A stretch of DNA of 41,559 bases from Elioraea tepidiphila DSM 17972 (lineage in GTDB: Bacteria; Pseudomonadota; Alphaproteobacteria; Acetobacterales; Acetobacteraceae): the NCBI RefSeq assembly GCF_000378465.1, contig NZ_KB899920.1, positions 1 through 41,559 of the forward strand. The letters run 5' to 3'. Under the pieces are notes generated by a model. It saw only the letters and a program-made list of their open reading frames with translations, was not told where the DNA came from and made no database searches. Shown here piece after piece: positions 1,194 through 41,559 of this stretch; position 1 is the first letter of the stretch, and every line of letters begins with the position of its first letter. The position numbers were made by a program, and so were the translations under genes.

Positions 1194-2468
1194 TCAGCGG
1201 ATCAGGCGGGGAATGGCGAGCACCAGATCCTCCCACAGGGTGATCGTGGCGAGCGTGGCAAGCAGCGGCACATAGAAGGGCACCATCGCGCGCAACAGTA
1301 CCTTCATGCTGATCTGGGCAATGTCGCAGATCAGGAACAGCGCCAACCCCATCGGCGGCGTCAGCAACCCGATCATCAGATTGAACACCACGAGCAGGCC
1401 AAGATGCACCGGATCTACACCGGCCGAGACCACCGGCGGGGCGATGATCGGCACGATCAGCAGTGTCGCCGTCGTGCTGTCGAGGAACATGCCGGCGATG
1501 AAGAAGATCACGTTCACCAGCAGCAGCAGCACCAGCCGATTGTCTGACAGTCCGGCGATCGCGGCGCCGAACGCCTGCGGGATCTCCTCGATCGCGAGGA
1601 TCCAGCCGAACATCGCCGCCGCCGCGACGATCACCAGGATCGCCGAGGTGTTGCGCGCGGTCAGCAGTGCGGCCTGGAGCACGTGTCCGAGCGTCATCTC
1701 GCGGTAGAGCACGAACCCGATTGCGAGCACATAGATGGCGGCGGCCGCTGCAGCCTCGGTCGGCGTGAAGATTCCGCTCAGCATGCCGGCGATCAGGAAG
1801 ACCGGCGCGAGCAGGGCGGGCAGCGCCGGACCGAGCGCGTTGATCACCTCGCGCGGCGTCGGCCAGCGATCGGCGCGCGGATAGTCGGCACGCAATGCGA
1901 CGATCGCGGCCGTCACCATCAGCGCGGCGGCGCAGAGGATCGCCGGCAGGATCCCCGCCATCAGAAGCTGGATGATCGAGACCGAGGTGACCGAACCATA
2001 GACGATCAGCGGAATCGAGGGCGGGAAGATGGGGCCGATGATCGCGGAGGAAGCCGTGACCGCAGCCGCGAAGGGCGCATCGAAGCCGCGCTCGCGCATC
2101 GCCTTGATCTCGACGCGCCCGAGCCCGCCGACATCGGCGAGCGCCGCCCCGGAGATGCCGGAGAAGATCAGGCTCGCGAGGATGTTCACCTGCGCGAGAC
2201 CGCCATGCAGGCGCCCCGCGAGCGTGCTCGCGAAGCGGAAGATGCGGTCGGTGATGCCGCTCAGGTTCATCAGATTGCCGACGAAGATAAACACCGGCAC
2301 GGCAACGAGCGGGAAGCTGTCGAGCGCATAGACGACGCGGCTCGCGAGCAGCGTCGGCGGCAGGCCCTCGATCAGCACGTAGGCGATGCTCGGGATCAGC
2401 ACCGCGTAGATGACCGGCACGCCCCAGATGAACAGGGCGGCGAAGCCGATGATGACAGCGAGGCCCAA
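1194..2468 (-). CDS. dctM: TRAP transporter large permease (DctM)
   Basis: A 424-residue, very hydrophobic protein with the repeated amphipathic/transmembrane pattern of the DctM family (about 12 segments). It has the family stretches FPLVAVPVFIFVGNLM, ASLIFSGISGAALADVGGLG and IIGPIFPPSIP. It is the channel-forming subunit of a sodium-driven TRAP importer and works with the small subunit DctQ and periplasmic receptor DctP encoded just upstream. It lies 8 bases after dctQ and 16 before rpiB, so it is clearly part of the same operon. The operon partners (ribokinase and RpiB) suggest that the transported solute is a sugar rather than a dicarboxylate. Confidence 0.93.
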   Translation of the reverse strand: MGLAVIIGFAALFIWGVPVIYAVLIPSIAYVLIEGLPPTLLASRVVYALDSFPLVAVPVFIFVGNLMNLSGITDRIFRFASTLAGRLHGGLAQVNILASLIFSGISGAALADVGGLGRVEIKAMRERGFDAPFAAAVTASSAIIGPIFPPSIPLIVYGSVTSVSIIQLLMAGILPAILCAAALMVTAAIVALRADYPRADRWPTPREVINALGPALPALLAPVFLIAGMLSGIFTPTEAAAAAAIYVLAIGFVLYREMTLGHVLQAALLTARNTSAILVIVAAAAMFGWILAIEEIPQAFGAAIAGLSDNRLVLLLLVNVIFFIAGMFLDSTTATLLIVPIIAPPVVSAGVDPVHLGLLVVFNLMIGLLTPPMGLALFLICDIAQISMKVLLRAMVPFYVPLLATLATITLWEDLVLAIPRLIR

Positions 2469-2476
2469 CGGTGTCT

Positions 2477-2953
2477 CTACAGCACGACGCTGCCACCGTC
2501 CTGCCCGCGGCGGAGACGGCGCAGATGCAGGAAGGCGGCGCCCGCGAAGCCGAAGGCCGCTGCGGCGAGATAGATCCAGAACGGAATGCGCAGTGTCGGC
2601 GTCATGTTGCGGGGATTGGCCGCGAGCGCCTCCCAGGTCGCCCAGACCATGATCAGGGCCGCTGCCGTGCAGGCGAGGCCGATCAGCAGGTCGGAGGCAT
2701 GGCGGAGCCGGGGGGGCAGACCCGCCTTCAGCTCCGCCATCACGATGTTCTCGCCCGCCGACACGACCAGCGGATACGCGATCCAGACCATCAGGATCAT
2801 GAGCATCCGCGTCACTTCCTCGAGCCCGACAATGGGCGCGAGAAAGATGTCGCGCAGCACGATCTGCGCAGCCAGGATCGCCACCAGGCCGAGCAGCAGT
2901 GTGACCGCCACGGCGCCGGTGGCGCCGAGCAGCAGGCGGGCGAGCACCTGCAC
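2477..2953 (-). CDS. dctQ: TRAP transporter small permease (DctQ)
   Basis: A protein of about 158 residues with four predicted membrane helices and the DctQ feature GLEEVTRMLMILMVWIAYPL. It is the small membrane subunit that pairs with DctM. The start is a GTG at 2953, two bases past the dctP stop. A second in-frame GTG six bases further in is an alternative. No ATG is available in the right place, and the short spacing suggests translational coupling to dctP. Length and topology are normal for the family. Confidence 0.88.
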   Translation of the reverse strand: MQVLARLLLGATGAVAVTLLLGLVAILAAQIVLRDIFLAPIVGLEEVTRMLMILMVWIAYPLVVSAGENIVMAELKAGLPPRLRHASDLLIGLACTAAALIMVWATWEALAANPRNMTPTLRIPFWIYLAAAAFGFAGAAFLHLRRLRRGQDGGSVVL

Positions 2954-2955
2954 CG

Positions 2956-3963
2956 TTACGACGCGGCCTGCACCTGGCCGATCCGCTCGATCAACGAGGT
3001 CCAGTTCGGATAGTCGCGGCGGATCTGCGCCTGCACCGCGGTCCGGAAGGCCGCGTTGTCCAGCCCCTCGGCTTCGGTGATCACGGTCATCCCGCGCTGC
3101 TTGAGCACCTGCACCAGCTCCGCGTCCGCCGCCTCGGCCCAGGCGAGCGACTCGTTCGCCTTCTCGGCAAGCGCGGCACTGATCGCGTGGCGCTCGTCCG
3201 CGGGCAGGCGCTGCCAGGCGCGGTCGTTCGCGAACACGGCCAGGACCGACAGCATGTGTCCCGTGAGTGAAACGTGCGACTGCACCTCGAACAGCTTGTT
3301 CGCGTTGATCATGGTGAGCGGGTTCTCCTGCCCGACCACCACGCCGGTCATCAGCGCGGTCGGCAGCTCCGACACCTCGACCGGCGTCGGCACGGCACCG
3401 AAGCCGCGCACCATCGACACCCAAAGATCGACCGGCACGGCGCGGAACGGCCGGTTGCGCAGATCCTCGGGCTTGCGGACCGCGAAGCGCGCGGTGATAT
3501 GGCGCGGTCCACGATAGATGCGGCCGACGATGCGGATGCCGGCCGCAGCGACCAGCTTGTCGTTCAGCTCCTTGGCGACCGGCGAGCGCTCCGGGTCGGT
3601 CGCGGCGAGCGCATGCCGGCCATCGCGATACACATAGGGGGCGTTGAACACGCCGAGCTCGGGCACGTACTTCGTCAAGGACGCGAAATCATGGTGCGCC
3701 ATCTGGATCGCGCCGGTCTGCACGCCATCCACCATCTCCGAGACGCCGCCGAGCTGGCTGTTGCCGAACACGCGGATATCCGTGCGGCCATTGCTCTTCT
3801 GCCTGGCCAGGGCCGCGAACTCCTCGGCGAACCGGGTCTGCACGTCACCCGGCGCGCCGACATGGGCATAGCGCAGCGTGGCTGCGCGCGCGTCGCGCGC
3901 GATGAAGGGCAACGTCGCGGCCGCAGCGGCGGTCGCGAGCATCGTGCGTCGGGTCACGATCAT
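2956..3963 (-). CDS. dctP: TRAP transporter periplasmic solute receptor (DctP)
   Basis: A 335-residue protein with an export signal. Its N-terminus has a twin-arginine-like TRRTML followed by an alanine-rich hydrophobic stretch ending ARA. The mature part begins ATLRYAHVGAPGD, typical of DctP/TeaA receptors, and has the domain-linking region around the conserved arginine (RGPRHITARFAV, then NRPFRAVPVDLW). It binds the solute in the periplasm and delivers it to DctQM. The ATG overlaps the end of the ribokinase gene by four bases (ATGA), so the two are translationally coupled. Receptor family alone does not identify the ligand. The neighbours point to a pentose or related sugar. Confidence 0.92.
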   Translation of the reverse strand: MIVTRRTMLATAAAAATLPFIARDARAATLRYAHVGAPGDVQTRFAEEFAALARQKSNGRTDIRVFGNSQLGGVSEMVDGVQTGAIQMAHHDFASLTKYVPELGVFNAPYVYRDGRHALAATDPERSPVAKELNDKLVAAAGIRIVGRIYRGPRHITARFAVRKPEDLRNRPFRAVPVDLWVSMVRGFGAVPTPVEVSELPTALMTGVVVGQENPLTMINANKLFEVQSHVSLTGHMLSVLAVFANDRAWQRLPADERHAISAALAEKANESLAWAEAADAELVQVLKQRGMTVITEAEGLDNAAFRTAVQAQIRRDYPNWTSLIERIGQVQAAS

Positions 3964-4949
3964 GGTCTGGTTTCCTCTGCTTGACGTGAGTCCGCCCGGT
4001 CCCGGCGGGCCAAGCCGGCCGCGATCTCCGCGCGGTCCGGCAGGGACGGCACCGCACCGCGGCGCCCGCAGGCAAGCGATCCGGCAACGACGCCGGCGGT
4101 CAGCGCCCCGGCGAGTTCGGCGCCGAGCGCGAGATGAGCCGCGACCGCGCCGACAAAGGCATCACCCGCCCCAGTCGTGTCGACGACGGCCACCCGCGGC
4201 GCCGGTACGTGCAGACCCTCCGGCGCTTCCGGCGCGGCCAGGAAGGCACCCTCCGCGCCCACCGTCACGACCGCGGCCGCGCCGCCGGCAAGACGCCCGC
4301 GCAGGGCCCTGCTCAGCCGCGCTCCACCCGCCTCCGCCGGCAGGCCTGTGACCGTCGCTGCTTCACCTTCATTGGCGACGACGAGATCGGCGAGGTCGAA
4401 CAGTTCAGCGGGGATTGCCTTGCTCGCCGGCGCGATGTTGAGCAGGGTGCGCGCGCCCTCGGTGCGGGCTCGCTCGAACGCGGCGAGCGTTGCTTCGATC
4501 GGGGTCTCAAGCTGCGCGAGGACCAGCGCTGCATCGGCAAAGATGCCGGCAGCTTCGGCCTCGGCGATCAGGGTGCGGTCGAGGAGCGCATTCGCGCCCG
4601 CGACGACGACGATCTGGTTCTCGCCGGCCGCGTCCACCTCGATGATGGCGGTGCCTGTCGGCTCTCCGACCCGGCGGACCGCGCGGGCGTCGATCCCTTC
4701 CTGGGCCCACAGCGCGAGCGCAGTCGCGCCGGGTTCGTCGGCGCCGATGGCGGCGACGATCGCCACGGGGGCACCGCACCGCGCGGCCTGGACGGCCTGG
4801 TTGCTCCCCTTGCCCCCATGCGCCGTCAGCAGTCCGTGCGCGAGTACGGTCTCGCCTGGGGCCGGGAAACGATCGAGCCGGACGACGATGTCGCGATTGT
4901 AGGACCCGATGACGACAATCCTGCCGCGGCGGCGACCGCTGGCGGTCAT
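3960..4949 (-). CDS. rbsK: Ribokinase-like sugar kinase (PfkB family)
   Basis: A protein of 329 residues when started at the ATG at 4949, which has GGGGAGGAA at ideal distance. An upstream ATG at 5000 would put the gene through the operator palindrome and is less likely. Visible PfkB motifs are the glycine-rich sugar-binding site AHGGKGSN (43-50) and the ATP/anion-hole motif DTTGAGDAF with catalytic Asp263. Early GSYNRDIVVRLD also fits ribokinase. It phosphorylates a free sugar after uptake. As first gene of the operon it is followed by the TRAP receptor and, at the end, RpiB. The sequence therefore reads as capture, phosphorylation and isomerisation of one sugar. Ribose is the simplest guess but is not proven. 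Confidence 0.85.
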   Translation of the reverse strand: MTASGRRRGRIVVIGSYNRDIVVRLDRFPAPGETVLAHGLLTAHGGKGSNQAVQAARCGAPVAIVAAIGADEPGATALALWAQEGIDARAVRRVGEPTGTAIIEVDAAGENQIVVVAGANALLDRTLIAEAEAAGIFADAALVLAQLETPIEATLAAFERARTEGARTLLNIAPASKAIPAELFDLADLVVANEGEAATVTGLPAEAGGARLSRALRGRLAGGAAAVVTVGAEGAFLAAPEAPEGLHVPAPRVAVVDTTGAGDAFVGAVAAHLALGAELAGALTAGVVAGSLACGRRGAVPSLPDRAEIAAGLARRDRADSRQAEETRP

Positions 4950-4990
4950 GCATTCCTCCCCTGCCCAGCGGTGACGCGTTGCTGGACGAC

Positions 4991-5010
4991 CTTTGCACAC
5001 GTGTGCAAAG
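4991..5010. promoter_or_regulatory. Perfect 20-bp palindromic operator for the LacI-family regulator
   Basis: CTTTGCACAC is followed directly by its own reverse complement, giving a 20-bp perfect palindrome with a central CG step. This is the layout of LacI/GalR-family operators (TTGCNNNCGNNNGCAA-like). It lies between the divergent kinase (start 4949) and regulator gene (start 5057), 42-47 bases from each start. It could therefore control both directions, including autoregulation. Confidence 0.85.
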
Positions 5011-5056
5011 CTTTCATCGATTGACCTCCGCCGTCAAGTCGGTGTCAGGAGGATGC

Positions 5057-6181
5057 GTGGACGACGAGATCGTGGAGCCGGGCACCGGCGGGCGCCGGTG
5101 GGTGACCTCGGCCGATGTCGCGCGCGAGGCCGGGGTCTCGCGCGCCGCTGTCAGCCGTGCCTTCACGCCGGGCGCCTCGGTCGCACCTGAGACACGCCGA
5201 CGCATCCTGGCTGCCGCCGACGCGGTCGGATATCGCCCCAACGCGATCGCCCGCAGTCTCAATACGCGCCGCTCGGGCATCATCGGCGTCGTCATCACCG
5301 AGATCGCCAACCCGTTCTACGCGCGCCTGCTGGAGGCGCTCGGCATCGCGCTGCAGGAGCGCGGTCTGATGCCGCTCGTCTCGGTCGCGCCCGATCCAGA
5401 GGCGACGGACGAGCTGCTCGTACGGCTCCTGTCCTATCAGGTCGATGGCGTCGTGGTCGCTTCGGCGACCCTCTCATCCGGTATCGCCGCGCGCTGCGCG
5501 GCGGCGCGCACGCCGATCGTGCTGGTCGACCGGCGCGCGGGAGAGCACGGGCGCGAGGCTGCACTCGTCGGTGCGGACAACGTGGGCGGCGGACACCTGG
5601 TCGCCGACCTGCTGGCCGCGGCGGGCCATCGCCGCCATGCCTTCCTGGCCGGCATCGAGGCGACGTCCACCAGCACCGAGCGTGAACGCGGGTTCGTCTC
5701 CGGCCTCGCCGCGCACGGGCTGACCTTGACCGCGCGCGAGGTGGGCCGGTTCAGCTATGTCGGCGGGCGGGACGCCGCGCTTCGCCTGCTGGGGCGGGCC
5801 GACCGCCCCGATGCCGTGTTCTGCGCCAATGACGAGATGGCGCTCGGGCTGATGGATGCGGCGCGCGCCACCTTCGGCCTGCGTATTCCGCAGGACCTCT
5901 CGGTGGTGGGCTTCGACGATACGCCCTCGGCCGCCCTCGCCTCCTACAGGCTGACGACCGTGGCGCAGGACGTCACTGAGCTCGCGGAGGCGGCCGTCAC
6001 CGCCGTCCAGGAGCACACCGGATCTGTGGCCGCCAGCGCACGATACCGCCTGATCCCATGCCGCTTGGTGCTGCGGGAGTCGGCACGCCTGCCGCCCCCT
6101 CCGGCATCCACGCTCCACGACCCGAACGCGATGACAACAGCGGCTGTACCGCCATCAGGACGGATGCCGGCAGCAGGGTGA
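5057..6181 (+). CDS. LacI/GalR-family transcriptional regulator of the sugar operon
   Basis: A 374-residue protein from the GTG at 5057, preceded by CAGGAGG. An upstream ATG at 4979 would run through the operator and lacks a ribosome site. Residues 16-36 form the helix-turn-helix (VTSADVAREAGVSRAAVSRAF). Next comes the hinge region (YRPNAIARSLNTRRSG) and then a periplasmic-binding-protein-like effector domain (IIGVVITEIANPFY, CANDEMALGLMDAA, VVGFDDTP). It is divergent from the kinase-TRAP-rpiB operon with a perfect palindrome between, so it most likely represses that operon until its sugar or a sugar phosphate binds. The last 20 or so residues are low-complexity and not conserved in the family. 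Confidence 0.9.
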   Translation: MDDEIVEPGTGGRRWVTSADVAREAGVSRAAVSRAFTPGASVAPETRRRILAAADAVGYRPNAIARSLNTRRSGIIGVVITEIANPFYARLLEALGIALQERGLMPLVSVAPDPEATDELLVRLLSYQVDGVVVASATLSSGIAARCAAARTPIVLVDRRAGEHGREAALVGADNVGGGHLVADLLAAAGHRRHAFLAGIEATSTSTERERGFVSGLAAHGLTLTAREVGRFSYVGGRDAALRLLGRADRPDAVFCANDEMALGLMDAARATFGLRIPQDLSVVGFDDTPSAALASYRLTTVAQDVTELAEAAVTAVQEHTGSVAASARYRLIPCRLVLRESARLPPPPASTLHDPNAMTTAAVPPSGRMPAAG

Positions 6182-6200
6182 TCACGGGGAGCGGATCCGT

Positions 6201-6222
6201 GACCCGGCTCCTGAGCGGGGTC
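6201..6222. terminator. GC-rich hairpin between convergent genes
   Basis: GACCCGGCTC and GAGCGGGGTC pair with a single mismatch around a two-base centre. It lies between the end of the lacI-type gene and the end of the TAXI permease gene on the other strand. There is no clear T run, so a terminator role is inferred from position only. Confidence 0.4.
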
Positions 6223-6230
6223 GATCTCCT

Positions 6231-8078
6231 TCAGTCCGCCGCCACCTCGGCCCGCGCCCGGCGCCGCGACGCCAGCTGCAGCAGCACCACCAGCCCGACG
6301 AGCGCCGCACCGATCGTGTCCGTCATCCAGCCCGGCTGGATCAACGTCACGGCCGCACCCACCATCAGCGCACGTTCAAGCCAGGTGGCGCGCGTCAGCA
6401 GATAGCCATGCAGCCCCGCCGCCAGCAGCAGACACCCGGCCGTGGCCGTGAATGACGCATGCGCGACGTCGATCCAGTCGCCGATCAGCAACAGCGACGG
6501 CGAGTACACGAACATGAAGGGCACGATGAATCCGGCCGCGCCCATCTTCACCGCCGCGATGCCCGACTGCCACTGATCGCTCTTCGCCAGTCCGGCCGCG
6601 GCGAACACCGCCAGGGCCACCGGCGGGGTGATCGCCGACAGGATCGCGAAGTAGAACGCGAACAAGTGCGCCGCGGGCGGCACCACGCCCAGACGGATCA
6701 ACGCCGGCACCAGCAACGCCACCATCACGATATAGGCCGGCGTGGTCGGCATCCCCATGCCCAGGATGATGCCGGCGATCATCGTCAGCACCAGCGCGAG
6801 CATCAGGCTGTTCTGCGCCGCCGCCAGCACGAACTGCGTGAAGATGATGCCCAGGCCCGAAATGGTGATCACCGCGATCACGATGCCCGCGCAGGCGCAC
6901 GCCATGGCGACCGCCAGCGCCCCCTTGGCGCCGTCCACCATCGCACCCCAGAGGTTGCTCAGCGTCACCGTGTCGCGCGAGTTCGCGCGCAACGCCGCGA
7001 CCGGAAAACAGGCGAGCGTCCCCGCCAGCGCCGACAGGGGCGCGGAGTAGCCCGAGAACAGTCCGCCCAGGATGATGAAGATGGGAATGAACAGATGGCC
7101 GCTGCTGCCCAGCACGACCGCCAGGCGCGGCACCTCGTCACCCGACAGGCCCCGCAGCCCTGTCCGCTTCGCCTCGAAATGCACCGCCCCGAACGCCGCC
7201 ACATAGAAGAGCAGTGCCGGCAGCAACGCCCAGGTGATCACCTCCAGATACTGAACCTGCAGGAACTCGGCCATCACGAACGCGGCCGCGCCCATGATCG
7301 GCGGCATGATCTGACCGCCGGTGCTCGCCACCGCCTCCACGGCAGCGGCGAACTGGGGCCGGAACCCGGTGCGCTTCATCAGCGGGATCGTCACCTGGCC
7401 CGTGACCATCACATTCGCCACGGCGGAGCCGGAGACGGAGCCGAACAGGCTCGACGAGATCACCGCCACCTTGCCCGGCCCGCCCGCCGCGCGGCCGGTC
7501 AGCGCCAGCGCGAACTCCATGAACAGACGCCCGACACCGGATCGTTCCATGAACGCGCCGAACAACACGAACACAACCACGAACCCGGCCGAAACACCGA
7601 GCGTCGAACCGAAGATGCCCTCGGTCGTCAGGTAGAGCTGGTCGATCAGGATGGGCAGCGGCTGCTCCAGCACGGTCGCGCCGAGCAGCAGGAAGACGAA
7701 CGCCGTCAGCGGCAGTGCCAGACCGATGACACGGCGTGCCGCCTCCATCACCAGCACGACGCACATCCAGCCCCAGAACGTGTCCTGGGGCGTCGGATCG
7801 TCGATATAGATGATGCGATAGACGACGTATTCGTAGTTGATGAACAGGTGCGCGACCGAGCCGACGGCCAGGACGAGCAGGATCCAGTCCTCGAGCCCGG
7901 GAGTGTCGCGCTTGCGCGTCGGGTGTGTGAGGAACACCAGCGCAAAGGCGAAGATCAGGTGCGTGCCGCGAAAGAACACCGCCTCCGGCGGGCCGAAGGC
8001 GGTGGTCCACATGTGATACAGCGACATCGCCACCGCGACGACGGCGGTCAGCAGGCCGACGCCGCGGGCGTATGTCAT
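6231..8078 (-). CDS. TRAP transporter fused permease (4TM/12TM, TAXI-associated)
   Basis: A 615-residue membrane protein that fuses the DctQ-like small subunit (first about 130 residues) to a DctM-like large subunit. Family landmarks are SLFGSVSGSAVANVMVTGQVTIP, EAVASTGGQIMPPIMGAAAF and GIILGMGMPTTPAYIVM. It imports a solute with ion coupling, and its receptor is the TAXI protein encoded just upstream. Fused permeases of this kind regularly go with TAXI receptors, as here. The start is the ATG at 8078, 23 bases after the receptor's stop; the ribosome site is weak, so translation may be coupled. The solute is unknown. Confidence 0.92.
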   Translation of the reverse strand: MTYARGVGLLTAVVAVAMSLYHMWTTAFGPPEAVFFRGTHLIFAFALVFLTHPTRKRDTPGLEDWILLVLAVGSVAHLFINYEYVVYRIIYIDDPTPQDTFWGWMCVVLVMEAARRVIGLALPLTAFVFLLLGATVLEQPLPILIDQLYLTTEGIFGSTLGVSAGFVVVFVLFGAFMERSGVGRLFMEFALALTGRAAGGPGKVAVISSSLFGSVSGSAVANVMVTGQVTIPLMKRTGFRPQFAAAVEAVASTGGQIMPPIMGAAAFVMAEFLQVQYLEVITWALLPALLFYVAAFGAVHFEAKRTGLRGLSGDEVPRLAVVLGSSGHLFIPIFIILGGLFSGYSAPLSALAGTLACFPVAALRANSRDTVTLSNLWGAMVDGAKGALAVAMACACAGIVIAVITISGLGIIFTQFVLAAAQNSLMLALVLTMIAGIILGMGMPTTPAYIVMVALLVPALIRLGVVPPAAHLFAFYFAILSAITPPVALAVFAAAGLAKSDQWQSGIAAVKMGAAGFIVPFMFVYSPSLLLIGDWIDVAHASFTATAGCLLLAAGLHGYLLTRATWLERALMVGAAVTLIQPGWMTDTIGAALVGLVVLLQLASRRRARAEVAAD

Positions 8079-34069: not shown

Positions 34070-34227
34070 CGCGGAGCCACCCTGGCCGTTGGCGGATCAT
34101 CCTCCCAAGGCCTGCTCTCAGCAGGTGGGCGCCGTGTACCGCGGCCACGACCGCGACAGGGACAGCTCCCAATGGGAAGATCACTGGCCCCGGGGATGAA
34201 GTGCCTGACGCACCGGGCAGCCCCGCG
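34070..34227 (-). ncRNA. ssrS: 6S RNA
   Basis: The 158-base stretch between zapA and the formyl-THF ligase gene can fold as one long rod. The outer stem pairs the 5' arm (34213-34227, CGCGGGGCUGCCCGG) with the 3' arm (34070-34085), 14 of 15 pairs counting G-U. A second stem further in pairs AUCUUCCCA (34173-34181) with UGGGAGGAU (34099-34107). Between these lies the middle region with GGCGCCCACCUGCUG. Length, rod shape and gene order (zapA - ssrS - fau) are those of 6S RNA, which sequesters housekeeping RNA polymerase. The exact ends are approximate; the call was made by eye. Confidence 0.78.
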
Positions 34228-36952: not shown

Positions 36953-37228
36953 ATGCCGACCGTGCTCAAGCTCTCCCGCCAGCGCCAGCTCACCCTCAAC
37001 CGCGCCATCGTCGCCGCCATGGGCAATCCGCGCTTCCTCGAGGCGCGCCTCAATCCCGACCGCTCGCTGACGCTGATCCCCGCCGATCGCCTGGATCTCC
37101 GCGAGGAGGTGCCGAAGGTGTACCGCGAGGCCGGGATCACCAAGGACGTGCTGATCGAGGCGCTGCGCATCGTGCAGCGGCGCGAGAAGGCGCGCGCGGC
37201 CGGCGCCGGGCGCACGGAGGATGGGTGA
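36953..37228 (+). CDS. SpoVT/AbrB-like small DNA-binding protein (antitoxin-like)
   Basis: A 91-residue protein from the ATG at 36953. Residues 3-43 (VLKLSRQRQLTLNRAIVAAM and then FLEARLNPDRSLTLIPA) follow the SpoVT/AbrB swapped-hairpin pattern: strand, QLTLN in place of QITLP, helix, then strands with a loop. The C-terminal part (REEVPKVYREAGITKDVLIEAL) is helical, as in antitoxins that clamp a toxin. No toxin gene follows on this strand. The next gene is a broken methyltransferase on the other strand. Residues from Ala-19 on are repeated almost unchanged 2,315 bases downstream. Confidence 0.6.
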   Translation: MPTVLKLSRQRQLTLNRAIVAAMGNPRFLEARLNPDRSLTLIPADRLDLREEVPKVYREAGITKDVLIEALRIVQRREKARAAGAGRTEDG

Positions 37229-37269
37229 TCTTTTTCCTATCCCATGCGGACAGGGGTGGAGTCAAGCGC
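37011..37269. repeat. Direct repeat, copy 1 (3' part of AbrB-like gene plus flank)
   Basis: Bases 37011-37200 match 39326-39515 with a single difference (A at 37142, G at 39457; Lys to Glu). The next 69 bases match less well but without gaps. They include an 18-base identical block after the stop (37234-37251, TTCCTATCCCATGCGGAC). The offset stays at 2,315 throughout. Confidence 0.9.
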
Positions 37270-37490: not shown

Positions 37491-39320
37491 TCAGCCGCCC
37501 AGCAGCGCCTCGACCGCGGCGTCGAGCTCGGTCGCCACGCCGGCATCGGCGAGCGCGCGGCGGATCGCCGCCCGCTGGGCGGTGAAGTGCCCGCCCTCGC
37601 GCACCTCCACCGCGGCGGCGAGGCGCTCGGCCCGCTCCGCCACGGCGGCAAGGCGGCGATGCTGCGGGTTGCGGGCGTCGTAGTCGGGGATGCGCAGCTC
37701 CCAGACCAGCTTGTCGAAGTGGCGTGCGCCCCATTGGCCGCGCGCCTGCATCCCGGCGATGCGCCGGCGCGTCGCCTCGGCGTTCAGCACCGCCGCGAGG
37801 TAGCGCGCCTCGCCCTCGTGGCGCGCCGGTGCCCAGTAGGCCATGTGGTCCACCAGCGCCGCGGGATTGCGGAGACTGGCGGCGGCCAGCAGCGTGCCGG
37901 CCTTGGCGTACACCACGCGCAGCGGCGCCGGCGGGTGCTGCACGGACAGCTTCCGCAGGTGATCCAGGTTCTCCCGCAGCGTCATCTTCGGCGTCGTCCC
38001 GTCCGGCGTCTTGGCCGCGTGCGCCGCCCACTTCGCCTCGGCGTCGCCGAGCCAGGCCGCGAGATGCGCAAGCCCGGCCAAGGCGGCGCCGCGCGCGTCC
38101 ATCACCGCGCCGCGCCCGTCCAGCGGCATCACGGCGAGCGCGGGCTCGCGCAGCCGGAACGGCAGGATCGTCTCGCCCAGCACCACCGGGCGCAGATACG
38201 CCGCCTCCACCGGCCCTTCGGGCGGCGTCACGCCTTTCCACGGCGCCTTGTCGAGGCCCCCTTCCCGCCCGCGCACGCGCGGCGCAGCCGGATTGGCGCC
38301 CAGCCGCCCGGCGGGCATCTTCTCCACGAAAAAGAACCGGCGCGGATAGATCGTCGCTCCGTCGCGGAATCGCGCGGCATACACGCTGGCAGGCATCCGC
38401 GCCGGCCCGGCCGGCCAGGGCTCCTGCCCCACCGTCAGCGCCGCATCGGCCTCCGCCTCGGTGGCGTCGCGCCGCGGCAGCGCGCCCCGATACGCGCGCA
38501 GCCCGGCCGGCAGCGCCACCGCCGCCCCCTCGGCGCGCGCCAGCCGGCGCGCGAACAGCGCGCAGGCCGGCACCGGAAACAGCGGCTGCACCCCCTCGTC
38601 GAAGCTCCAGGCCGCGCCGATCGCGAGGCGAACCCGCGCGTGGTGCCCCTCGCGCAGCCCCCGATAGGCCGGCCGGTTCAGCGCCGCATAGGGCAGCAGG
38701 AAGGCGATCGTGCCGCCCTCCTTCAGATACCGCTCGGCCGCGCGCACCCAGAACAGCGCGGAGAGGTCCTGCTGGGTGGCGAACCGCCCGCCCTGCCACA
38801 GGTTCTCGGCCCGGCACGCCGCGCGCACCCGCGCCTGCAGTTCCGGCGCCATGTAGCGGAAGGCCAGCCAGGGCGGATTGCCGATCACCACATCGGCCCG
38901 GTTCTCCGGCCGCGACAGCCAGAGCGGGCGCACCAGATTGCGCAGCACGAACGGCCAGACATCGTCCCGGCCCGCGGCATGGAGCGCGCGCAGCCGCCGG
39001 AACGGCGCGACCATCGCCCGCGCATCGTGCTCGCCCACCCCGGGCAGGCGGGCGAGCGACGCCACCAGCGCCTTCTCCTCGCCGCCGCCCAGCGCCGCCT
39101 GCACCAGCGCCAGCCCCGCGTCATAGGCGGCCTGGTTCTCGGCGAACCCCGCCGGGATCGTGATCGGGCTGTCGTCCGGCACGCGCACCACCACGTCGCG
39201 CCCGCCCGCCACCTCGCGCAGGTTCCATTGCAGCGAATCGCCGAGATAGACCGGCACCGCGAGCGTGCCCCGCCGGTGCCGCACCGCCTCGCCCAGCGCC
39301 AGCAGCCAGGTCACGCGGGC
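37491..39320 (-). pseudogene. DNA adenine-N6 methyltransferase, truncated at the 5' end
   Basis: About 608 codons remain. The retained part starts at RVTWLLALGEAVRHR and runs through VYLGDSLQWN and the catalytic motif ADVVIGNPPWLAF (NPPW at 38868-38879), the mark of N6-adenine methylases of the Eco57I/PglX-like type. Then come AERYLKEGGTIAFLLPYAALNR and a C-terminal specificity-like region (HMAYWAPARHEGEARYLAAVLNA, WELRIPDYDARNPQHRRLA). Intact relatives have several hundred residues before this, with the SAM-binding DPACGSG motif. Here that part is missing, and the frame instead runs into the antisense of the AbrB-like repeat at about 39320. Without motif I it cannot be active as an ordinary methylase. 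It may derive from a restriction or phage-defence locus. Confidence 0.8.
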
Positions 39321-39321
39321 G

Positions 39322-39543
39322 ATGATCGCCGCCATGGGCAATCCGCGCTTCCTCGAGGCGCGCCTCAATCCCGACCGCTCGCTGACGCTGATCCCCGCCG
39401 ATCGCCTGGATCTCCGCGAGGAGGTGCCGAAGGTGTACCGCGAGGCCGGGATCACCGAGGACGTGCTGATCGAGGCGCTGCGCATCGTGCAGCGGCGCGA
39501 GAAGGCGCGCGCGGCGGGCAGCGGGCGCACGGAGCGAAGTTGA
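39322..39543 (+). pseudogene. Truncated second copy of the AbrB-like gene
   Basis: It lacks the first about 18 residues of the AbrB-like domain, including the QLTLN strand. An in-frame ATG at 39322 could give a 73-residue product starting MIAAMGNPRFLEARL. It would keep the helical C-terminus that usually binds the partner toxin but lose most of the DNA-binding fold. Whether it is made is unknown; no ribosome site is seen. It begins exactly where the methyltransferase gene is cut. Confidence 0.7.
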
Positions 39544-39584
39544 CATTCTTCCTATCCCATGCGGACGGGGCTGGAGTCAGGCGC
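39326..39584. repeat. Direct repeat, copy 2
   Basis: The partner of 37011-37269: 190 bases with one mismatch, then 69 bases of weaker but gap-free similarity. Its left end coincides with the methyltransferase breakpoint, and its right end lies 127 bases before the TTG of the TnpB-related gene. Confidence 0.9.
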
Positions 39585-39711: not shown

Positions 39712-41559
39712 TTGAACCCATCGCCGCCCAGGACCAAAGCCGTCCTCCGTGTCGTCCGCTTCGGCCTGCACGCGCCGTCCGCCCGCAAGCGCGCGATGCT
39801 GGACGATGCGCTGCGCCGCCAGACCGTCGCCTATGGCCGCGCGCTGGAGGCGGCACGCCCGCACGCGATCGCCCGGCTGCGCATCGCCGCCCGGCTCGCG
39901 CGGACGACCGACAAGGACACACGCGCCGCCCTGATCATCGAGGACCGCGCGGCGCAGCGCGAGATCGCCAACGCCGCCCGTCGCGCGGCAACGACCGCAT
40001 ACACTTCCTCGATCATGGCCGACGGCCTCGCCAAACACGTCAAGGATACCGTCCAGTCCTGGATCGGCTGGCGCGAGAAGTTCCGCGCCGAGCGACCCGG
40101 CCGCATCGCGCGCGCACTCGACCGGCTGCGCGAGGTCGAGGCCGACCCCGCCGCCACCGTCGAGGCCCTGCAGAAGCGCCGCCCGCGCGCGGCCATCACG
40201 GTCGAGCACGTGATGACGAGCGCGACCCGCCGGCTCGAACGCGAGCGCGAGCGCCGCCCGCCCGCCTACCCCGCCGGCCCGCGCATCGCCGCGCCGCCGG
40301 AGGACCGTGCCGCGCTGCTCGGCGAACTCGCGCTCACCGCGCGCAAGGAGGACGAGGACCGGCTGCGCGACCGCCTCGCGACCGATCCGAAGATCGGCCG
40401 CACGCCGCTCTCCTGGTCGCGCGCCTCGGGCGATCTCAAGCGCGGCGTGTCCCTGATCCGCGGCGACGGTGGACGGATCGACGCCTTCCTGCCCGGCGTA
40501 CTGCCGGATCGGGCGCGCCGCGCCGCCAAGGTCGCCTGGACCGGCGACAAGACTCTGGTCGGGATCAAGTCAGAGCGCACGATGCCGCGCAGCATCGGCC
40601 TGCGCGTGCCGCTCTCCTTCCCGCGCCACGCCTGGCAGTATCTCGACGACTGGACGCCGCGCACCGCCAAGCTGGTCGCGTTCCCCGCCGAACGCGGCTG
40701 GCGCTACGAACTGCATGTCGCCTTCGCGCGTCGGGTCGAGACGGTGCAGCCGAATCCCGAGCAATGGATCGGCCTGGATCGCGGTGTCGCCAATGTCGTC
40801 GCCGTGGCGGATGCGTCGGGCGCCGAGGGCTACCTTTCCGGCAACCGCCTCGCCCCCGTCGAGCGGCGGCTGCGCAACCAGCGCGAACGCGACCAGCAGC
40901 GCGGCCGGGCGCGGGCGATGCGTGCGACGAAGCGCGCGTTCCGCGATGCCGCGCGCAACGAGGTCAACCGCATCGCCAAGCATGTCGCGCGGCTGGCGGT
41001 GCGGCGGGGTGCCATGGTCGCGGCGGAGGACCTGCGCGCCTTCGCCCGCGGCGATGCGCGCACGCTCAGCCGCGCCCAGTACGCCGCGCTGCTCGCCGCC
41101 GTGGAGCGGCGGCTTGAACTGGCCGGCTACCGGCCGGTCGCGGCCAAGGGCAAGCGGGTGTGGCAGGTCCAGCCGGCCTACACCAGCACGACCTGTCCGG
41201 AATGCCGCAAGGTCGATGCGGCGTCGCGCATCGACCGCGACCACTTCGTCTGCACCGCCTGCGGCCACGCCGCGGATGCGGACCTGAACGCCGCGCGCAA
41301 CATCGCGCGCAAGGGTCACGAGACCCACGGGATCGCCCGCCGCCGGAAGGCGGCGCGGCGTGGGGGCGAAGGCCCGCCGGCATCCGCCGGTGGGGTCGTT
41401 GCGGCTCCCGCTTCTGCTGCGGGGGCTACGGTCCCTCGTGGTGGGGCGAACAGACCAAAGGCCGGTGGAGACGCTGACGGGGCACGCACCCCGCCGCGCG
41501 CACGGAGTGCATCACCGGCCGTTTTCGAGGCAGGCTCGGAGGGGAAAAACGCAGCCGCG
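39712..41559 (+). CDS. Large TnpB-related / Cas12-like RuvC nuclease with zinc ribbon (cut by window edge)
   Basis: The frame is open from the stop at 39661 to the window edge. The only suitable start is TTG 39712, with GAGG eight bases before; ATG 39796 would drop the VLRVVRFGL strand. At least 616 residues are encoded. The RuvC site is complete: Asp356 in WIGLDRGVANVVAVAD, Glu439 in VAAEDLRAFA, and Asp524 in DADLNAARNIA. A zinc ribbon sits between the last two (Cys495, Cys498, Cys514, Cys517; TCPEC and CTAC). This is the core of TnpB/Cas12. TnpB is usually about 400 residues with RuvC-I near 190; here about 355 residues precede it, closer to compact Cas12 forms. WRYELHVAF before RuvC-I matches TnpB. 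The last 85 residues are low-complexity, Ala/Gly/Arg/Pro-rich. No tnpA or cas gene is in view. RNA-guided cleavage is inferred from the family. Confidence 0.8.
   Translation, partial: MNPSPPRTKAVLRVVRFGLHAPSARKRAMLDDALRRQTVAYGRALEAARPHAIARLRIAARLARTTDKDTRAALIIEDRAAQREIANAARRAATTAYTSSIMADGLAKHVKDTVQSWIGWREKFRAERPGRIARALDRLREVEADPAATVEALQKRRPRAAITVEHVMTSATRRLERERERRPPAYPAGPRIAAPPEDRAALLGELALTARKEDEDRLRDRLATDPKIGRTPLSWSRASGDLKRGVSLIRGDGGRIDAFLPGVLPDRARRAAKVAWTGDKTLVGIKSERTMPRSIGLRVPLSFPRHAWQYLDDWTPRTAKLVAFPAERGWRYELHVAFARRVETVQPNPEQWIGLDRGVANVVAVADASGAEGYLSGNRLAPVERRLRNQRERDQQRGRARAMRATKRAFRDAARNEVNRIAKHVARLAVRRGAMVAAEDLRAFARGDARTLSRAQYAALLAAVERRLELAGYRPVAAKGKRVWQVQPAYTSTTCPECRKVDAASRIDRDHFVCTACGHAADADLNAARNIARKGHETHGIARRRKAARRGGEGPPASAGGVVAAPASAAGATVPRGGANRPKAGGDADGARTPPRARSASPAVFEAGSEGKNAAA
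41340..41559 (+). other. Possible guide-RNA scaffold region overlapping the nuclease 3' end
   Basis: After the zinc ribbon the coding sequence turns repetitive and forms strong hairpins. CCGGC-ATCC-GCCGG is at 41377-41390. GCTCCCGC and GCGGGGGC are around TTCTGCT at 41404-41426 (one G-U). In TnpB loci the guide (omega/re) RNA overlaps the 3' end of the gene and runs past it to the element end. The low-complexity protein tail fits selection for RNA structure rather than protein. This is suggestive only; the true 3' end lies outside the window. Confidence 0.28.

What the first reader, a model, noticed from the sequence alone, without database searches (positions are those of the whole stretch)
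39712..41559. Unusually large TnpB-related nuclease with intact RuvC triad: candidate undescribed RNA-guided system
Seen: an open frame of at least 616 codons from a TTG start to the window edge, with D356/E439/D524 and four zinc-ribbon cysteines in the TnpB/Cas12 order. Known: TnpB (about 400 residues) and Cas12 use this core for RNA-guided DNA cleavage. Inferred: the 355-residue N-terminal region, almost double that of TnpB, may be a REC-like RNA/target-binding extension, placing the protein between transposon TnpB and compact Cas12. There is no tnpA beside it, so it may be a stand-alone or exapted nuclease. The unusual start and open end make it easy to miss.
Basis: partly seen in the sequence, partly recalled or inferred. 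Interest (0 to 1): 0.88.

Follow-up and report, generated by a model that had tools for sequence, protein, structure and literature searches.

The report
Rare Cas12f-like CRISPR nuclease clade
The gene at the window's edge belongs to a rare group of small DNA-cutting CRISPR-type proteins, found in phages, plasmids and bacterial chromosomes, most of whose other members sit beside a CRISPR array; it looks most like the known mini-nuclease Cas12f but forms its own branch.

Summary
The frame, the RuvC triad D356/E439/D524 and the four-cysteine zinc ribbon are real. Known profiles match only the C-terminal half. Searching outward gave nine further lineages of the same full-length architecture: two genomes of the host's unnamed taxonomic family, a Nitrospirota MAG, a Pseudoalteromonas plasmid and phage, a Salinibacter plasmid, two Salinibacter-type phage lineages and another viral contig. 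With the window they form one clade (100/99) apart from the sampled TnpBs. Eight of the nine have a CRISPR array beside the gene; phage J2-1 shows none. The window's own array cannot be seen: after its last base the contig reads N for 1,510 bases. One Salinibacter plasmid spacer matches Salinibacter phage at 35 of 39 bases. The closest fold is AsCas12f1, on a middling model. No Y1 transposase was found in the genome. Verdict: a compact type V effector, probably Cas12f-like in mechanism, from a rare clade for which I found no open-access description. The window's guide RNA is weakly supported.

The parts
39712..41559 (+). Open reading frame of the effector (TTG start, no stop before the window edge)
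   Evidence: profile A6, of which the window is itself one of eight rows, scores it 475 bits over positions 2-453 of 455
39712..40638 (+). N-terminal half (residues 1-309): first strand, family motif at residues 20-26 (HAPSARK here), then a helical REC-like part with insertions private to this copy
   Evidence: the best-scoring profile stretches lie outside it or only touch its end, from residue 268 at the earliest; aligned with relatives; model shows a strand then long helices
40639..41316 (+). C-terminal half (residues 310-535): RuvC and zinc ribbon with the strands before them
   Evidence: NCBIfam guided_TnpB 80.5 bits over 310-534, PADLOC Cas12f 343-536
40777..40779 (+). RuvC-I aspartate D356
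   Evidence: invariant in the 8 rows of A6
41026..41028 (+). RuvC-II glutamate E439
   Evidence: invariant in the 8 rows of A6
41194..41262 (+). Zinc ribbon C495, C498, C514, C517
   Evidence: Pfam PF07282; cysteines invariant in A6
41281..41283 (+). RuvC-III aspartate D524
   Evidence: invariant in the 8 rows of A6
41317..41559 (+). Open tail after the conserved protein; the place where the putative tracrRNA part lies in L126 and L127. Holds a 35-base block (41383-41417) with 28 of 35 bases as in L127
   Evidence: 1 of 500 shuffles as good against L127, 25 of 500 against L126, 2 of 500 against L008 (a different, hairpin-like stretch), 173 of 500 against L039. Against: RNA model R1 finds no match here; folding energy z -0.51

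Best explanation
The gene encodes a compact, probably catalytically active type V CRISPR effector of a rare clade that is Cas12f-like in fold, size and locus plan. Inferred mechanism: the array next to the gene is transcribed; a tracrRNA-like RNA encoded at or after the 3' end of the gene pairs with the repeats; the effector, perhaps as a dimer as in Cas12f, uses this guide to recognise and cut phage or plasmid DNA with its single RuvC site. New spacers would come from adaptation genes elsewhere in the cell. Shown here: the family, its clade, its intact triad, and arrays beside 8 of 9 other lineages; one spacer with a phage target. Inferred: that the window copy also has an array (it would lie in the run of N), the tracrRNA, dimerisation and cleavage.
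For: Full-length family of 10 lineages: profile A6 gives 283-653 bits over nearly the whole model, against at most 152 bits for the best other hit (75 of 109 rows printed). Eight of the ten are rows of A6 and match by construction; the two that are not, L126 and L127, score 309 and 283. One clade, 100/99, in a tree of 81 rows of the last ~260 residues, and in all of 200 bootstrap trees. Arrays with near-identical repeats and differing spacers: L008 5 repeats, L021 8 and L022 5, L023 6, L026 8, L039 16, L126 5 and L127 15; in L126, L127 and L008 the first repeat begins at or a few bases after the stop codon. Control: of the 65 other rows printed, 16 have an array within 1.5 kb; 15 of these are look-alike viral loci (scores 106.7-111.1; those of them in the tree form one near-identical clade), the other is L003. 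Plasmid pSR16 spacer 3 matches Salinibacter phage 4_12 gene 22 at 35 of 39 bases, last 25 exact. Fold: the first hits are AsCas12f complexes, E 5.7e-15, TM-score 0.54 by query and 0.71 by target; CnCas12f1 is rank 9, OsCas12f 10, the first TnpB 23. PADLOC Cas12u3 covers L027 (14-455 of 483) and L021 (13-462 of 488), 3.4e-33 and 2.8e-28. Repeats fit their own 3' region better than the others' repeats do: 10 of 720 permutations as good, six members tested (L021 and L026 left out beforehand). L126 and L127 share a 6-bp hairpin with two double changes (read by eye). No Y1 transposase found.
Against: No array is visible in the window's own locus: the stretch after the gene reads N. The member in phage J2-1 has no array in the stretch examined. 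RNA model R1 from L126+L127 finds neither the window tail nor L008 nor L039; the tails of L008 and L039, and of L126 and L008, are no more alike than shuffles (395 and 341 of 500), so a family-wide RNA is not shown; folding energies of the 3' stretches are ordinary (z between -1.41 and 0.15) except L008 (-3.96). The window's N-terminal half matches no Cas12f profile, and the AlphaFold model is weak (mean pLDDT 69.3, pTM 0.52). Only one spacer target was found: the L127 array gave best E 1, the L021 array none in phages and only itself in plasmids, the L026 array, in the 12 of 182 rows printed, only phage arrays; the arrays of L008, L039, L126 and L023 were not searched in public collections.
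Confidence: 0.77

Rival explanations
1. A TnpB that outlived its transposon: an omega-RNA-guided nuclease without CRISPR array, guided by sequence at its 3' end.
For: C-terminal half resembles TnpB (NCBIfam guided_TnpB 80.5 bits); an RNA overlapping the 3' end of the frame is the TnpB habit (recalled); no array visible at the window itself; the J2-1 member has none nearby.
Against: Below the guided_TnpB cut-off of 100; groups with array-bearing members, 100/99; 8 of 9 other lineages have arrays; single copy and no Y1_Tnp match in the genome.
Confidence: 0.12
2. An effector whose own array is lost or degraded, so that it is a relic or borrows crRNAs from another CRISPR system of this genome.
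For: The genome has three Cas1 loci of different kinds and an array about 0.7 kb from one of them; the window row is a long branch, 1.48, as expected if constraint is relaxed.
Against: Triad and zinc cysteines intact; frame open over its whole visible length; in six members tested the repeats fit their own 3' region, which speaks against sharing arrays of other types.
Confidence: 0.09
3. A nuclease-dead RNA-guided repressor of the TldR kind.
For: RuvC-dead relatives of TnpB are known (recalled).
Against: All three catalytic residues are present in the window and invariant in the 8-row alignment.
Confidence: 0.02

Closest known systems
Cas12f1 (subtype V-F, formerly V-U3; AsCas12f1 and kin)
   Same: Compact single effector, RuvC triad plus zinc ribbon, closest fold in PDB; locus plan effector - putative tracrRNA - array without adaptation genes, as in passages of PMC7229846; Cas12u3 profile covers two relatives nearly end to end.
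   Different: The window's N-terminal half matches no Cas12f profile; the family is diverse, 24-31% identity of the window to seven members and 23-96% among all eight; the array begins at or just after the stop codon in three members (L126, L127, L008) and lies upstream of the gene in one (L021).
TnpB of IS200/IS605 and IS607
   Same: RuvC and zinc ribbon of the same superfamily; TnpBs match the C-terminal half.
   Different: No Y1 transposase found in the genome; different N-terminal half; CRISPR arrays beside relatives; separate clade from the TnpBs sampled.
TnpB-derived type V variants (candidate systems collectively V-U; about 50 independent TnpB-to-CRISPR events per passages of PMC12669027)
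   Same: This clade looks like one such event.
   Different: I could not tell whether it is one already catalogued there; the data files were not readable here.
Cas12m (V-M) and LaTranC
   Same: Weak C-terminal similarity (UnCas12m4a 1.5e-6, LaTranC 1.1e-4).
   Different: First Cas12m fold hit is rank 17, behind the Cas12f hits; [quoted passage not shown]

Membership tests
Cas12f (subtype V-F) | Compact effector with intact tri-split RuvC and zinc ribbon | tested here: met
Cas12f (subtype V-F) | CRISPR array beside the gene | tested here: inconclusive
   Present in 8 of 9 other lineages (not in J2-1); at the window the next 1,510 bases read N
Cas12f (subtype V-F) | tracrRNA with anti-repeat | tested here: inconclusive
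   Swap test 10 of 720; hairpin with double changes in L126/L127; RNA model negative for window, L008, L039; anti-repeat scan mostly within shuffled range
Cas12f (subtype V-F) | Full-length match to a Cas12f profile | tested here: not met
   Window: best stretches lie within residues 268-556 for every Cas12f model. Nearly met for two relatives with Cas12u3
Cas12f (subtype V-F) | Cas12f fold | tested here: met
   AsCas12f first, TM 0.54/0.71, on a model of middling confidence
Cas12f (subtype V-F) | Branches inside Cas12f in a tree | not tested
   the tree held no named Cas12f reference rows
Cas12f (subtype V-F) | Dimer that cuts dsDNA with a 5' PAM | not testable with these tools
   needs biochemistry; one protospacer is too few for a PAM
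TnpB (IS200/IS605, IS607) | Reaches curated guided_TnpB score | tested here: not met
   80.5 against 100 bits
TnpB (IS200/IS605, IS607) | tnpA or IS607-type recombinase beside it | tested here: not met
   no Y1_Tnp match at E 0.001 in the genome; the 3 resolvase matches lie on contigs C39, C7, C24, not C11
Type V clade described here | Full-length profile match and single clade | tested here: met
   the window is one of the rows of the profile, so its own match is by construction, the clade is not

The most novel reading that the evidence does not exclude
The clade is a separate origin of a type V CRISPR system from TnpB, not a branch of Cas12f: in the chromosomal members its tracrRNA still lies in the 3' end of the effector's own reading frame, as the omega-RNA does in TnpB, while the Salinibacter phage and plasmid members have it in a non-coding spacer. 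It would be a living series of steps from omega-RNA to tracrRNA plus array, used in conflicts between phages and plasmids of one host where both sides carry the same system.
Probability: 0.3. Interest if true: 0.78.

Novelty: new variant of a known kind. Interest (0 to 1): 0.62.

Why it matters
A rare clade with full-length members in phages, plasmids and chromosomes of at least three phyla (Pseudomonadota, Nitrospirota, Rhodothermota by record titles and taxonomy lines) widens the small RNA-guided nucleases. If the guide RNA overlaps the gene in some members and stands free in others, the step from omega-RNA to tracrRNA becomes testable inside one family. The Salinibacter pair (plasmid spacer against phages that carry the same system) is a ready model of one mobile element aiming a CRISPR nuclease at another.

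Tried and rejected
Ordinary TnpB, IS605/IS607 membership, TldR-like repressor: see rivals and membership table.

Tried without result: viral-contig scans with the window protein, with A1 and with L021 gave no relative. The scan with A3 found 116 relatives and kept 80; by profile only L039 of these was a new member, the others being copies of members already known (L028, L030-L032, left out) or C-terminal matches; 36 were never seen. RNA model R1 gave no match to any member in 29 sources, only three weak ones elsewhere with E 4.2 to 7.5. Rfam found only 6S RNA in the window. Spacers of L127, L021 and L026 gave no usable target. Pattern GGNGATCGGGGG (from the L008 repeat) gave 13 scattered matches in the own genome. 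A ten-base resemblance between the first bases after the N run and the reverse complement of the L008 repeat was seen by eye and dropped as untestable. The anti-repeat scan against mononucleotide-shuffled flanks beat all 20 shuffles only for L022 (+) and for the short stretch L021b (-); the swap test was used instead, but 10 of 720 is modest. The stop-free-tail count used a wrong frame for L126 and is not used for it; for window, L127 and L008, 1004, 203 and 234 of 2000 shuffles stay open. An earlier count said 27 of 35 for the block shared with L127; recounted it is 28 of 35.

Full report
What is there. The frame at 39712-41559 is open from a TTG to the window edge. Residues 310-535 carry the RuvC and zinc-ribbon core; D356, E439, D524 and C495, C498, C514, C517 are in place. 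Profile libraries see only this half: Pfam Cas12f1-like_TNB 2.7e-15, PADLOC Cas12f 3.7e-19 and Cas12u3 4.3e-19, NCBIfam guided_TnpB 80.5 bits, below its cut-off of 100, a PDB chain of AsCas12f (8j12) 3.2e-12 over 393-532.

The end of the window. In the host contig (144,976 bases) the gene runs into 1,510 bases that read N, starting at the first base after the window. In 447,666 bases of own-genome and window sequence (partly overlapping, about a tenth of the genome) this is the only such run. It may be an assembly gap or a withheld stretch; I cannot tell and did not try to fill it.

Relatives. A pattern-based scan of the genome-contig collection gave one relative, full-length, in a Nitrospirota MAG (L008), with five 36-base repeats and 30-base spacers directly after the gene. 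With L008 as query, a Pseudoalteromonas plasmid (the 1 of 46 matching plasmid records with at least 80% coverage) and 182 Salinibacter phage records (of 186 matching; 182 with at least 80% coverage) followed; then Pseudoalteromonas phage J2-1 (two records of one phage), Salinibacter plasmid pSR16 (H43, its N-terminal part recognised), a second Salinibacter-type phage (L026) and viral contig L039 (recognised). With profile A6, 10 of 397 genomes of the host's taxonomic family pass E 1e-30, of which 3 are full-length: the window, G247 and G139. At E 1e-45 only the own genome is found in samples of 385 of its class and 398 of its phylum; in a sample of 245 of the Nitrospirota genome's phylum 6 pass 1e-30 and 1, the MAG itself, is full-length.

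Arrays. Of nine other lineages, eight have an array beside the gene: L008, L021 (upstream), L022, L023, L026, L039, L126, L127. J2-1 has none within bases 2300-7000 of its locus. In L126, L127 and L008 the frame stays open through the tail and stops inside or a few bases before the first repeat. As a control, 16 of the 65 other rows printed (75 of 109 rows were printed) have an array within 1.5 kb: 15 look-alike viral loci and L003. Flanks differ between loci (about 1.5 kb for genome-search loci, up to 4 kb for viral ones), so this control is rough.

Clade. In a tree of 81 rows from the last ~260 residues (rows with profile score 75 or more reaching position 448 or beyond; exact copies dropped), the ten lineages are one side of one branch (100/99; all of 200 bootstrap trees; 0 of 500 label shuffles as low). 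The window row is a long branch (1.48), so its place inside the clade is open. The tree had no named Cas12f reference rows, so it does not decide whether the clade lies inside or outside Cas12f.

Fold. The AlphaFold model from window, L008, L039, L024, L026 and L028 has mean pLDDT 69.3 and pTM 0.52. Its best PDB matches are AsCas12f complexes (E 5.7e-15), then CnCas12f1 and OsCas12f; the first TnpB is rank 23. By sequence profile the best PDB match is an AsCas12f chain, 2.6e-31, but only over positions 236-451 of 455. PADLOC Cas12u3 covers the J2-1 protein (14-455 of 483) and the Pseudoalteromonas plasmid protein (13-462 of 488) nearly end to end; passages of PMC7229846 group V-U3 with Cas12f1 and describe loci as effector, putative tracrRNA, array. 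Passages of PMC13186708 describe Cas12f REC domains as variable in length between clades, which fits the long N-terminal half here.

Guide RNA. Between gene and array the Salinibacter phage and plasmid lineages align over some 370-430 bases (mean column identity 72%, three sequences, two of them close) while the proteins are 45% identical; RNAalifold gives 22 of 101 pairs with a kept double change, on only three sequences and with a weak covariation term of -1.48. L126 and L127 tails are clearly alike (0 of 500 shuffles) and share, within the coding tail, a 6-bp hairpin with two double changes and unchanged flanks (read by eye); they are close relatives and the stretch is coding, so coding constraint may explain part of this. 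Own repeat against own 3' region beats swapped repeats in all but 10 of 720 permutations of six members. Against a family-wide RNA: L008/L039 and L126/L008 tails are no more alike than shuffles (395 and 341 of 500), R1 misses L008 and L039, and only L008 has an unusual folding energy (z -3.96; the other six between -1.41 and 0.15). For the window the support is thin: a 35-base block shared with L127 (28 of 35; 1 of 500 shuffles) and a 30-base block at the same place with L126 (23 of 30; 25 of 500); R1 misses it and its folding energy is ordinary (z -0.51).

Targets. pSR16 spacer 3 matches gene 22 of Salinibacter phage 4_12 at 35 of 39 bases. The pSR16 array matches something in 181 phage records, 145 of them at 90-95% identity; the 20 rows printed all show this spacer. 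Those phages carry the same system. Passages of PMC6060240 mention additional minor arrays in plasmids of strains M1 and SP73 that could act in trans; the nuclease beside the pSR16 array is not mentioned in the passages I saw.

Transposon reading. One copy in the genome, no Y1 transposase match, three resolvase matches on other contigs. The host has three Cas1 loci of different kinds, so adaptation could be supplied in trans (inference).

Print. Searches of the open-licence library showed no description of this clade in their listings; Tordoff 2025 and Altae-Tran 2023 are not held, and PMC12669027, of which I saw passages, says about 50 TnpB-to-CRISPR events have been inferred. So the clade may be an unnamed row in a published tree.

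Verdict. A real, rare, probably active compact type V effector clade, Cas12f-like in mechanism; the window is a divergent member whose array is unseen.

Noticed in passing
L003 (G092:C16, same class as the host), frame 1183-2853 on the minus strand, repeats 983-1435: A TnpB-type gene outside this clade with about seven 36-base repeats (66-67 base period) at the 3' end of its open frame: apparently another, separate TnpB-CRISPR association.
   Followed up: partly
window 36996-37269 and 39311-39584: A 274-base direct duplication, 92% identical, brackets much of a minus-strand type IIG restriction-methyltransferase-like frame (37491-39530) that covers only part of its profile; the second copy ends 128 bases before the effector.
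   Followed up: partly
own genome, contigs C24, C10, C7: Three Cas1 loci of different kinds (best models Cas1g, Cas1_II, Cas1e) and an array of about 10 repeats near the first.
   Followed up: no
L022 (pSR16) and Salinibacter phage records: Plasmid and phages of the same host species both carry members of this clade, and the plasmid array holds a spacer against the phages.
   Followed up: partly
L064-L092 in part (IMG/VR contigs): A look-alike viral group of TnpB-like frames, most about 635 codons, with arrays about 100-170 bases after the gene.
   Followed up: no
window 40920-41319: Three overlapping 200-base windows over the RuvC-II/zinc-ribbon coding part fold more stably than shuffles (z -3.1 to -3.6, 40 shuffles each), unlike the tail. 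Unexplained.
   Followed up: no
window 34070-34226, minus strand: 6S RNA, 63.6 bits.
   Followed up: no
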